Below are positions 1-3,085 of a stretch of 46,867 nucleotides of DNA, in pieces. This DNA is from Candidatus Woesebacteria bacterium GW2011_GWA1_38_8. GTDB lineage: Bacteria > Patescibacteriota > Microgenomatia > UBA8517. Each line of letters begins with the position of its first letter. Positions within the stretch are counted from its first letter, which is position 1. A program made the translations under genes and the position numbers. Under the pieces are notes generated by a model. It did not search any database and had not been told where the DNA came from. It saw nothing but the letters and a program-made list of their open reading frames with translations. The stretch lies in NCBI GenBank assembly GCA_000993025.1, contig LBVJ01000011.1:26039-72905 (forward strand). Direction: 5' to 3'.

Positions 1-982
1 AGGGTGTTGGTGTTCTGGTTGGTATCGGTGTTACAACTATAAAATATGTGGGGAGTGGTCCTCCCGTAGACGCTGCACAGACTCCTCCGGAACAATTTCC
101 GGAACAACAAACTCCGGGATCTGTTCCCCCACAAGTTGATCCATCCGGAATACAAAACGGTATTCCGGTTAAAGTCGGGGTCGACGCTGCAGGCGTTGCT
201 GTAGGTAAAACAGTTTGACAACGGAGAGTAGAGGAAGAACAATATAAACCTGAACAGCAACCACCTTCCGTTACCACACAGGGTTGATTGTAACCAATAC
301 AGGCGATAGGTGTAGCAGTAGGAAAAATTGTCAACATAGGAGTTGCTGTCGGCGGAACATCCTGACAAGTGAATGAGGCGGGGGAACAATAGTTTGAACA
401 ACAACCGTTATCGGGTTCTGTTACATTACAAGGTGCACCTGTCGGATAACATCCTTCATATACCGCTTGTACACATTCACAGTCACGATCGGTGCAATCA
501 GGAAAAGGAAGGGTACACTGTGTCAAATTAATGGGCTCATAACCTGTGGGGCAGGAACACACACACAGATTGTCATCCACATCGCCGTCACAATTTCCGA
601 TCAATATTGCTATTGTTGGAGTTGCGGTTGAATCAGAATCATCGCCCTCAAAACCAGGCGATCCCAGCATTCCAATATTTATCCCAAGTATTGCATTTAC
701 CAGCTGTGTCAGGAAAAAGACCAAAAGCAATATTAAAAGTCCGACTATAGCGTGAGTTATCCTTTTTCTTGCAGTTTCAAGCTTACCTTTATCTCCACCT
801 GCAGTTATCCACCCAAAGGCACCCGCAACAAAAATAAATATAAAAATAATAACTCCCACAAGAAAGGCAATATCAACAAAGGATGGTAAAACCCTGTTAA
901 GATAGTTCCAACCCCCTACATCATAATCCCCACCAAGTAATGGATTGCTTACCTGAGCAAGAAGCGTCGTTAATAAGAACAT
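1..982 (-). CDS. Partial (runs off left edge) membrane-anchored protein: two-TM pilin-like (VirB2/TrbC/T4SS_pilin-like) N-terminal domain followed by Cys-rich tandem knottin-like repeats with PTATP linkers
   Basis: Reverse-strand frame from ATG at 982 stays open to position 1. N-term reads MFLLTTLLAQVSNPLLGGDYDVGGWNYLNRVLPSFVDIAFLVGVIIFIFIFVAGAFGWITAGGDKGKLETARKRITHAIVGLLILLLVFFLTQLVNAILGINIG, with the 'ITxGGDKxxLExARxRITHAIVGL' motif typical of CPR pilin-like proteins. The C-term contains repeated C-x6-C-x6-8-CC-x3-4-C-x4-6-C. Absent from the supplied ORF track because it has no in-window stop. Confidence 0.85.
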   Translation of the reverse strand, partial: MFLLTTLLAQVSNPLLGGDYDVGGWNYLNRVLPSFVDIAFLVGVIIFIFIFVAGAFGWITAGGDKGKLETARKRITHAIVGLLILLLVFFLTQLVNAILGINIGMLGSPGFEGDDSDSTATPTIAILIGNCDGDVDDNLCVCSCPTGYEPINLTQCTLPFPDCTDRDCECVQAVYEGCYPTGAPCNVTEPDNGCCSNYCSPASFTCQDVPPTATPMLTIFPTATPIACIGYNQPCVVTEGGCCSGLYCSSSTLRCQTVLPTATPAASTPTLTGIPFCIPDGSTCGGTDPGVCCSGNCSGGVCAASTGGPLPTYFIVVTPIPTRTPTP

Positions 983-1252
983 AAAGATAACTTGATATTA
1001 ACACATTAACCAAATAACATTCCATACCCACCAAAAGTATATTGGGAATAATTCGTTTAATTTGTTAAAATACCCAGAGGACGGGGTGTAGTTTCTAGTT
1101 AGATTTGCGACTTGCGAATCAGAATGATGAGCAATTAAGCAAACCTGATTATATGAAATATTTATGAATTTCATATCGGTAGAATGGGTATCCGCTATAA
1201 GGCGGATATGTAGTAAGGCATAAAAAGAAAATCTTAAAAAGAGGTTGATTTA

Positions 1253-1323
1253 CGGGGTGTAGTTTACCGGTAGAATGGGCGCATGGGGTGCGTCCGGACT
1301 GGGTTCAATTCCCAGCACCCCGA
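1253..1323 (+). tRNA. tRNA-Pro(GGG)
   Basis: Full cloverleaf: acceptor CGGGGTG/CACCCCG, D-stem GTTT/GAAT, anticodon stem GGCGC/GCGTC with loop ATGGGGT (anticodon GGG), T-arm CTGGG-TTCAATT-CCCAG, discriminator A; CCA not encoded. Confidence 0.93.
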
Positions 1324-1379
1324 CTTTCCTTTATAACTTCGTCGGGTAAACCCGGTTGGAACAATACAAAGAAAGTCCC

Positions 1380-1715
1380 ATGCATAACTTTAAGGCAAGG
1401 TTATTTAAAAAGATCGTTCCATTGTTTGATATAAAGGACAAACTGTTTTTTATATCTATTATCCTTACACTTCCTTCCGTACTAATCTGGTTTTTTGGAA
1501 CGATAAGCTATTTTTGGAGTCTGGCTTATAAATACATTTTTATTAATATGTCTCTGAAATGGCAAACGCTGTTTCTTCTGATAATTCCTTTTACGGCGTC
1601 AATACTCTCATTGATCGTTTATATAAGAACAAGGTCCCGCCCTTCAAAGATGTTATTTCTCCTGAATCTATTCTTTATTATTTTGGTAATTTTTGCATCC
1701 TTACTGCTTGGGTAA
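1380..1715 (+). CDS. Small multi-TM hypothetical membrane protein
   Basis: Hydrophobic ORF; ATG at 1380 (MHNFKARLF...) is more likely than the TTG at 1356. Confidence 0.55.
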   Translation: MHNFKARLFKKIVPLFDIKDKLFFISIILTLPSVLIWFFGTISYFWSLAYKYIFINMSLKWQTLFLLIIPFTASILSLIVYIRTRSRPSKMLFLLNLFFIILVIFASLLLG

Positions 1716-1749: not shown

Positions 1750-1835
1750 TCACGCTACGCGTTCCTTCAACGCGCTGTAAGGAGACCTTAGCATCGCATT
1801 TTAGTCACGCTACGCGTTCCTTCAACGCGCTGTAA
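1750..1835. repeat. 31-bp direct repeat pair (1750-1780 and 1805-1835), TCACGCTACGCGTTCCTTCAACGCGCTGTAA
   Basis: Exact identity read in sequence; the second copy encodes the last residues and stop of the uppS ORF. Confidence 0.95.
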
Positions 1836-3085
1836 AATTTCTGAAGATAGTCTTCCGCCTTTTCCCAATGTTCGTCACCGTAACCTCTGATCGCTAAATT
1901 TTTTTCCATATTGGCCAGAACACATAAGTGTGCTACTTTCGTTGCCTGAAAAAGAGAGATCCTGTAAACTTCAGCGTATAAACTTTTAGCCAGATCTTCC
2001 GCATCACCCGAATTTTCTATATCCCTTTTATCAACCATTTCTTTCCATAAGTTTACCTGAAGCGAAGTAACGAGCGACGGTTCAAAGGCCAATTTTATCT
2101 CCTCTTTAATAAGAGCATAAAACTTCTTCAGGGGGATTTTTGCATTTTCCCATTTCTTTTTATTCCCCTCAATAACCGCTTGTGTAAACAAAATTCCGGC
2201 TTCTTTGGCCAAATCTTTTGAAAACCCAAATTGTTCTTTTATATGGGCTGTTGCATAATCGCGGAATCTTGTATCTTCAGGAATGTTTGCCAGTCTCCAC
2301 CATTTAAGTTCCATTTGAGCTGTTATCTGCGGTTTGAAAAAAAAATGCTCCTCTATATCGTTTCCGCCGAATCTTCTTCTTCGTCTGGAATAATCAAGGA
2401 CCGCAGTCTTTAATTTTTCCGGAGTAAAATCGGGAAAATGATCGTTCTCCCAATAGTATTCACAATATGCGGAATTCCAAAGCAAAAACCCACTCGTTCT
2501 TTGCTCACCCGAAGTCCTGATCATCAAATCCACATAAGGATAAGGCTGATCCCGAAGATCTACATATTTATCTATCAGATCCTTGTTTATATCATTCCCG
2601 GCAATACCGGCGGAAACCACCTTTTTTACTGCTCTCAAAATATCATCCTGTCCGCCATAATCTATTGCCAAATTCATAATGTATTTTGAATTGTTTCCGG
2701 TCTTTTTTTCGGCAAATTGAATTTTATCCAGTAAAAATTTCGGCAGCCGGTCTTTCCTTCCCAAATGAACTATTTTGACATTATCACGATCGGCTTCAAC
2801 CAGATAATCATCTATCAGTTTTTTATAAAGTCTCATCAAATATTTTATTTCCTCTTCCGTTCTATCCCAATTTTCTGTAGAAAAACCCCATAAAGTTACT
2901 GTATGAATACCGATTTTTCTTGCAGATCGGGCCAGCTCCACAGCTCTTTCAAAACCAGCTTTGTGCCCAAGAAAAGTATGAAGCCCCCGTGACCGCGCCC
3001 ACCTTCTGTTGCCATCGGGGATAATTGCCAAATGATCGGGTACTTTTGTTCCCTTCGGAAGTTTAAGTTCTGCCTCTGAAGCCAT
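1805..3085 (-). CDS. uppS: Isoprenyl (undecaprenyl diphosphate) synthase with long C-terminal extension
   Basis: IIPDGNRRWARSRG, HKAG, WGFSTENW, IRTSGEQRTSGFLLWNSAYCEYYW motifs; about 170 residues beyond the RRRRRFGG end of the catalytic domain. Confidence 0.93.
   Translation of the reverse strand: MASEAELKLPKGTKVPDHLAIIPDGNRRWARSRGLHTFLGHKAGFERAVELARSARKIGIHTVTLWGFSTENWDRTEEEIKYLMRLYKKLIDDYLVEADRDNVKIVHLGRKDRLPKFLLDKIQFAEKKTGNNSKYIMNLAIDYGGQDDILRAVKKVVSAGIAGNDINKDLIDKYVDLRDQPYPYVDLMIRTSGEQRTSGFLLWNSAYCEYYWENDHFPDFTPEKLKTAVLDYSRRRRRFGGNDIEEHFFFKPQITAQMELKWWRLANIPEDTRFRDYATAHIKEQFGFSKDLAKEAGILFTQAVIEGNKKKWENAKIPLKKFYALIKEEIKLAFEPSLVTSLQVNLWKEMVDKRDIENSGDAEDLAKSLYAEVYRISLFQATKVAHLCVLANMEKNLAIRGYGDEHWEKAEDYLQKFYSALKERVA

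What the first reader, a model, noticed from the sequence alone, without database searches (positions are those of the whole stretch)
1..982. Pilin-like two-TM domain fused to three tandem knottin-like CC-motif modules with PTATP linkers
An unlisted open minus-strand ORF starts with a two-TM segment bearing ITAGGDKGKLETARKRITHAIVG, characteristic of small pilin-like (VirB2/TrbC/T4SS_pilin) proteins in Patescibacteria. Then follow CYPTGAPCNVTEPDNGCCSNYCSPASFTC (365-451), CIGYNQPCVVTEGGCCSGLYCSSSTLRC (218-301) and CIPDGSTCGGTDPGVCCSGNCSGGVC (77-154), separated by PTATP-rich linkers. The spacing C-x6-C-x6-8-CC-x3-4-C-x4-6-C matches the inhibitor cystine knot layout of spider and cone-snail toxins and of plant and insect knottins. 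A further Cys-rich block (NLCVCSCPTGYEP...CTDRDCEC) precedes them. A surface-anchored bacterial protein displaying concatenated knottins would be unusual; it could be an adhesin or effector toward a host cell, and the ORF continues past the window.
Basis: partly seen in the sequence, partly recalled or inferred. Interest (0 to 1): 0.85.

Follow-up and report, generated by a model that had tools for sequence, protein, structure and literature searches.

The report
Pilin-anchored knottin array in Woesebacteria
An uncultured ultra-small bacterium carries a membrane-anchored, pilin-like protein that holds four knottin domains (the small disulfide-knotted fold best known from spider and cone-snail venoms), and the same domains turn up on pilins of distantly related Patescibacteria, which suggests they help these probable parasites grip other cells.

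Summary
The ORF ends at an 8-N scaffold gap; read across it, it encodes 535 aa with 46 Cys. Order: T4SS_pilin-type two-TM anchor (PF18895, E 1.3e-5, 1 bit below the cut-off), an 8-Cys block, three knottin modules on PTATP linkers, a SDGG-type Cys domain, a fourth knottin, and a new 8-Cys C-terminal domain. Orthologues occur in two other Woesebacteria genomes.

A profile of the bacterial modules hits 47 PDB sequences at E<1, nearly all ICK peptides. The AlphaFold model of module 2 (pLDDT 82) matches ICK toxins at TM 0.79-0.82.

It is uncommon (about 3-6% of sampled Patescibacteria genomes) but not unique: about 9 of 20 module-bearing proteins found are pilins, six VirB2/T4SS_pilin-like and three true type IV pilins. 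In this genome the same 8-Cys domain also ends a type IV pilin. DsbA/DsbB, VirB4, a pilin array and T4P genes are present.

Best reading: an exported, pilus-associated or membrane-anchored adhesin whose knottins bind a partner cell. Architecture is well supported; knot connectivity and function are inferred. It is a new variant of a known kind (pilin-anchored adhesins). Descent from animal toxins is not supported.

The parts
2..982 (-). Pilin-anchored knottin-array protein, residues 1-327 of 535 (continues to C11:25413, L005:11414)
   Evidence: ORF
665..901 (-). Two TM helices of T4SS_pilin type (residues 28-106; Pfam match 30-94) with basic cytoplasmic loop TAGGDKGKLETARKRITHA (5 K/R)
   Evidence: PF18895 E 7e-6; hydropathy; loop charge
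473..592 (-). N-terminal 8-Cys block (residues 131-170), shared with the G001 and G013 pilin-like paralogues
365..451 (-). Knottin module 1 (C-x6-C-x8-CC-x3-C-x6-C)
302..364 (-). PTATP linker 1
   Evidence: sequence
218..301 (-). Knottin module 2 (C-x6-C-x6-CC-x4-C-x6-C); AlphaFold model pLDDT 82, TM 0.79-0.82 to ICK toxins
155..217 (-). PTATP linker 2
   Evidence: sequence
77..154 (-). Knottin module 3 (C-x6-C-x7-CC-x3-C-x4-C)
1..76 (-). PT-rich linker running into the 8-N scaffold gap; beyond it SDGG-type Cys domain (res. 355-424), knottin 4 (425-449), 8-Cys C-terminal domain (466-535)
1356..1715 (+). Small membrane protein; a protein that looks homologous by eye sits at the same place in G001 (synteny marker)
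1805..3085 (-). uppS-like undecaprenyl diphosphate synthase, synteny marker shared with G001
   Evidence: PF01255 E 1.6e-67

Best explanation
This is an exported surface protein built on a VirB2/T4SS_pilin-type anchor. Both termini of the anchor face outside; the basic loop faces the cytoplasm. Its long exodomain carries four ICK (knottin) modules on Pro/Thr-rich, probably extended stalks, plus three other disulfide-rich domains. DsbA/DsbB oxidise the exported chain so that each module knots. The anchor either enters the T4SS-like pilus or stays in the membrane next to it. The protease-resistant knottins then act as several copies of a binding head that contacts a partner or host microbe, much as type IV pilins with extra C-terminal domains do in Saccharibacteria. 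Shown: architecture, module profile and model, presence of the oxidation and pilus genes, and recurrent knottin-pilin fusion. Inferred: knot connectivity, pilus incorporation, partner binding.
For: Anchor: PF18895; basic loop and N-out/C-out topology. Knottin fold: a profile built only from bacterial modules hits 47 PDB sequences at E<1, nearly all ICK peptides, best 1.9e-4; two relatives' modules exceed Pfam's cut-off for Toxin_12 as excised modules (22.9 and 33.7 against 21), though not in the whole proteins; model of module 2 fits ICK structures over full length, rmsd 1.3-1.7 A. Pilus link: about 9 of 20 distinct module proteins are pilins: T4SS_pilin type in G000, G001, G013, G135, G406, G586 and type IV pilins with N_methyl signal in G049, G234, G641. 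In this genome the target's 8-Cys C-terminal domain also ends a type IV pilin in the PilD locus. Exodomains swap on the same anchor: endostatin/DUF1554-like in G010. The same SDGG-knottin-8-Cys cassette sits on a signal-peptide M23 peptidase with intact HxxxD and HLH, next to T4P genes, in G013. Machinery: DsbA/DsbB, VirB4 of the CD1110 family at 371 bits, pilin array, T4P genes. Literature: VirB2 arrays abundant in Microgenomatia and proposed to aid host adaptation (PMC12102498); in TM7x, PilX2 with an extra C-terminal domain is needed for normal host binding (PMC12206443).
Against: No evidence that this particular T4SS_pilin domain polymerises, and no binding partner is known. The gene is not in the pilin array (C31) or near VirB4 (C2), but beside recA and uppS. 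About half of module-bearing proteins are secreted or anchored proteins without a pilin domain, so the knottin is not pilus-specific. The host of Woesebacteria is unknown.
Confidence: 0.5

Rival explanations
1. The two-TM domain is only a membrane anchor, and the Cys-rich exodomain is a rigid, protease-resistant coat or spacer, or binds the cell's own wall or surface layer, with no role in attachment to other cells.
For: The gene is solitary in G000, away from the pilin array and VirB4. The same cassette is joined to an M23 peptidoglycan hydrolase in G013, which would also fit binding to own wall.
Against: Knottins and the 8-Cys domain also occur on true type IV pilins with prepilin signals, whose normal fate is a filament. 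Exodomains differ between genera, more like ligand domains than a conserved coat.
Confidence: 0.25
2. The modules are released or act in place as inhibitors or toxins (protease or amylase inhibitors, antimicrobial knottins) against neighbours.
For: Known knottins are mostly inhibitors, antimicrobials or channel toxins (general knowledge); module 2 is closest to spider ICK peptides.
Against: No processing site was tested or evident between modules. The likeness to toxins is mostly the Cys frame: a profile from residue-shuffled modules with the Cys frame kept still finds only ICKs, 13 against 47 hits. The other domains suit display rather than release.
Confidence: 0.12
3. The modules are ordinary bacterial Cys-rich repeats that do not form a cystine knot.
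For: No coordinates could be inspected for 1-4/2-5/3-6. AlphaFold had only 6 sequences, three of five models scored 60-64, and it may recall toxin folds. Raw Foldseek E-values are weak (best 0.019), as expected for 35 residues.
Against: The profile and the Cys-frame control retrieve nearly only ICKs from all PDB sequences. A different module, inside a poor 179-residue model, also matched conotoxin GXIA (TMt 0.73, rmsd 1.0).
Confidence: 0.1

Closest known systems
T4SS_pilin / VirB2-like pilin arrays of Patescibacteria (PF18895; PMC12102498)
   Same: Two-TM core with basic GGDK...ARKRI loop and N-out/C-out topology; genome also has a classic array and VirB4
   Different: Array members in this genome are about 110 aa; this one is 535 aa with a 430-aa Cys-rich exodomain and lies outside the array
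Inhibitor cystine knot peptides (theraphotoxins, conotoxins, plant knottins)
   Same: Six-Cys frame C-x6-C-x5-8-CC-x3-4-C-x4-6-C; predicted fold TM about 0.8
   Different: Tandem modules in a large bacterial membrane protein; no evidence of common descent with animal or plant knottins
Type IV minor pilins with added C-terminal domains, e.g. PilX2 of Nanosynbacter lyticus TM7x (PMC12206443)
   Same: Pilin plus extra adhesive domain on an episymbiont; knottin or 8-Cys domains occur on real type IV pilins in relatives
   Different: Target has no prepilin signal; its anchor is of the T4SS_pilin kind and its heads are knottins, not a beta-propeller
SCREPs, secreted Cys-rich repeat proteins (PMC6262176)
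   Same: Concatenated disulfide-rich domains; paper reports many in bacteria
   Different: That survey (passages read) names no pilin anchor

Membership tests
Knottin / inhibitor cystine knot | Six Cys in frame C-C-CC-C-C with ICK loop lengths | tested here: met
   4 of 4 modules; profile retrieves nearly only ICKs from the PDB
Knottin / inhibitor cystine knot | Small antiparallel beta fold with C-terminal hairpin | tested here: met
   Predicted strands 21-24 and 29-32; TM 0.79-0.82 to ICK structures; prediction only
Knottin / inhibitor cystine knot | Disulfides 1-4, 2-5, 3-6 with the third passing the ring | not testable with these tools
   No coordinates returned; needs experiment
T4SS_pilin (PF18895) | Profile score above the gathering cut-off 26.6 | tested here: inconclusive
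   25.6 (full) and 26.5 (window part); orthologue 29.1 passes
T4SS_pilin (PF18895) | Two TM helices with short basic cytoplasmic loop | tested here: met
   TM 28-64 and 72-106, loop with 5 K/R
T4SS_pilin (PF18895) | Polymerises into a pilus | not testable with these tools
   Needs experiment
Type IV pilin | Prepilin N_methyl signal | tested here: not met
   No PF07963 match in the target; met in relatives G049, G234, G641 and in G000:C20
Animal venom ICK toxins (by descent) | Sequence kinship beyond the Cys frame | tested here: inconclusive
   Best single toxin hit E 0.05; the shuffled-residue profile keeps ICK hits; convergence is likelier

The most novel reading that the evidence does not exclude
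Patescibacteria have repeatedly put knottin modules on two unrelated kinds of pilin (VirB2-like and type IV) as exchangeable binding heads for recognising the cells they live on.
Probability: 0.4. Interest if true: 0.78.

Novelty: new variant of a known kind. Interest (0 to 1): 0.6.

Why it matters
How Patescibacteria choose and hold their hosts is largely unknown. Knottins are small, stable and can be made recombinantly, so if they are the binding heads, host receptors could be fished out directly with single modules. It would also place a fold best known from venoms and plant defence on bacterial pilins, by convergence.

Tried and rejected
VKOR in own genome: none. Structure of the SDGG-knottin-8-Cys region: low confidence (pLDDT 59), so the C-terminal domain's fold stays unknown. 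First alignments for folding misplaced module 3's CC and were redone without it. Descent from animal toxins: rejected as unsupported. Literature: searches combining knottin or cystine knot with Patescibacteria, pilin, or prokaryotes showed no report of pilin-borne knottins among the papers listed; the one combining CPR, cysteine-rich and pilin returned none; the library is partial.

Full report
What was checked. The ORF starts at ATG 982 on the minus strand and is open to the window edge. The window lies at G000:C11:26039-72905 of a 1.04-Mb, 59-contig assembly. Base 1 abuts a run of 8 N. Beyond it the same frame continues to a stop, giving 535 aa, C11:25413-27020. The gap length is not known, but the orthologue in G001 joins the same N- and C-terminal parts in one uninterrupted ORF. 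The closest relatives are named: G001 is Candidatus Woesebacteria GW2011_GWA1_39_21 and G013 is Woesebacteria RIFCSPLOWO2_01_FULL_39_23.

Anatomy. Residues 28-106 form two TM helices with the basic loop TAGGDKGKLETARKRITHA, matching PF18895 T4SS_pilin at E 1.3e-5, about one bit under Pfam's cut-off. The orthologue passes it. Charge puts both ends outside. Then follow an 8-Cys block (131-170), knottins 1-3 (178-206, 228-255, 277-302) on PTATP linkers, a PT stalk with the gap, a SDGG-type 6-Cys domain (355-424), knottin 4 (425-449) and an 8-Cys C-terminal domain (466-535). Every domain has an even number of Cys, 46 in all. In 100,000 shuffles of the Cys-rich segment, none gave even two strict modules. 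The modules share 67-73% of aligned DNA positions, as expected of old tandem duplicates.

Are they knottins? Single sequences only hint at ICK toxins (E 0.05). A profile of 23 bacterial modules hits 47 PDB sequences at E<1, nearly all ICK peptides. A control profile with all non-Cys residues shuffled still hits 13, all ICKs. So the Cys frame itself is ICK-specific, and the rest adds signal, but this does not show descent from animal toxins. Cut out on their own, modules of G013 and G641 exceed Pfam's cut-off for Toxin_12; in the whole G641 pilin the match is just below (19.3). The AlphaFold model of module 2 (6 sequences, pLDDT 82 for the best of five; others 60-82) matches ICK toxin structures over its full length at TM 0.79-0.82, rmsd 1.3-1.7 A. 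Knot connectivity could not be read.

How widespread? In the own genome the modules occur only in this protein. In the order, 3 of 57 genomes have them; in the class 11 of 374, or 22 of 374 with a broader profile and looser threshold; in the phylum sample 9 and 13 of 380. Some of the weakest hits lack the CC. Reading the proteins, I count about 20 distinct ones with a full CC module. Nine are pilins: T4SS_pilin type in G000, G001, G013, G135, G406 and G586 (in G586 the knottin precedes the anchor), and type IV pilins with an N_methyl signal in G049, G234 and G641. Against an assumed background of 6% pilins among exported proteins, 9 of 20 has P about 1e-6, and at 15% about 1e-3. The background is assumed, the three Woesebacteria proteins are related, and the profile was seeded from pilin-borne modules, so this is a guide, not a test. 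Other carriers include dockerin-like secreted proteins and an M23 peptidase.

Links to pili and wall. The 8-Cys C-terminal domain (profile A4) occurs in 9 of 348 class genomes. In the own genome its second copy ends a type IV pilin in the locus with the prepilin peptidase. In G013, three tandem pilin-like proteins with this domain lie next to recA and recX; the target too lies just upstream of recA and recX. In G010 the same anchor and C-terminal domain carry an endostatin/DUF1554-like domain instead of knottins. In G013 the SDGG-knottin-8-Cys cassette is fused to an M23 peptidase with its metal ligands HxxxD and HLH, beside T4P genes. In G001 a shorter copy sits next to a T4P operon.

Machinery. 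The genome has a DsbA/DsbB pair but no VKOR, a VirB4 of the CD1110 family on the contig with dnaA, a T4SS_pilin array, and T4P genes PilB, PilC, PilM and pilins on the same contig as the target.

Mechanism. Export and oxidation follow from the anchor and DsbA/DsbB. Incorporation into a pilus is plausible but unproved. Binding of partner cells is inferred from domain swapping on the anchor, tandem copies, the recurrent pilin link, the wall-hydrolase fusion and published roles: VirB2 arrays in Patescibacteria are proposed to serve host adaptation (PMC12102498), and in TM7x the extended minor pilin PilX2 is needed for normal host binding (PMC12206443). The host of Woesebacteria is unknown.

Verdict. 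It is uncommon rather than unique, and the more interesting point is the recurrent knottin-pilin link across the phylum. I place it as a new variant of a known kind, pilin-anchored adhesins.

Noticed in passing
L032:4765-6768 (G010:C1): T4SS_pilin-type anchor with an endostatin/DUF1554-like (C-type-lectin-like) exodomain and the same 8-Cys C-terminal domain.
   Followed up: partly
L031:5211-7580 (G013:C15): Secreted M23 peptidase whose N-terminus is the SDGG-knottin-8-Cys cassette, next to type IV pilus genes.
   Followed up: partly
L115:1036-1719 (G000:C20): Type IV pilin in the PilD locus of the own genome ending in the same 8-Cys domain as the target.
   Followed up: partly
L130:6407-8350 (G000:C2): Large TM protein ending in an M23-like domain (HVHF, HDHYEF) directly after virB4; perhaps a VirB1-type wall hydrolase. 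Read by eye only.
   Followed up: no
L006:478-1572 (G000:C31): Pilin-array member with a Cys-rich ectodomain before, not after, the two-TM domain.
   Followed up: partly
window 1253-1324: tRNA-Pro(GGG) between the knottin protein and uppS; the end of its sequence (aaactacaccccgt) seems repeated as a fragment near window 1080-1095.
   Followed up: no
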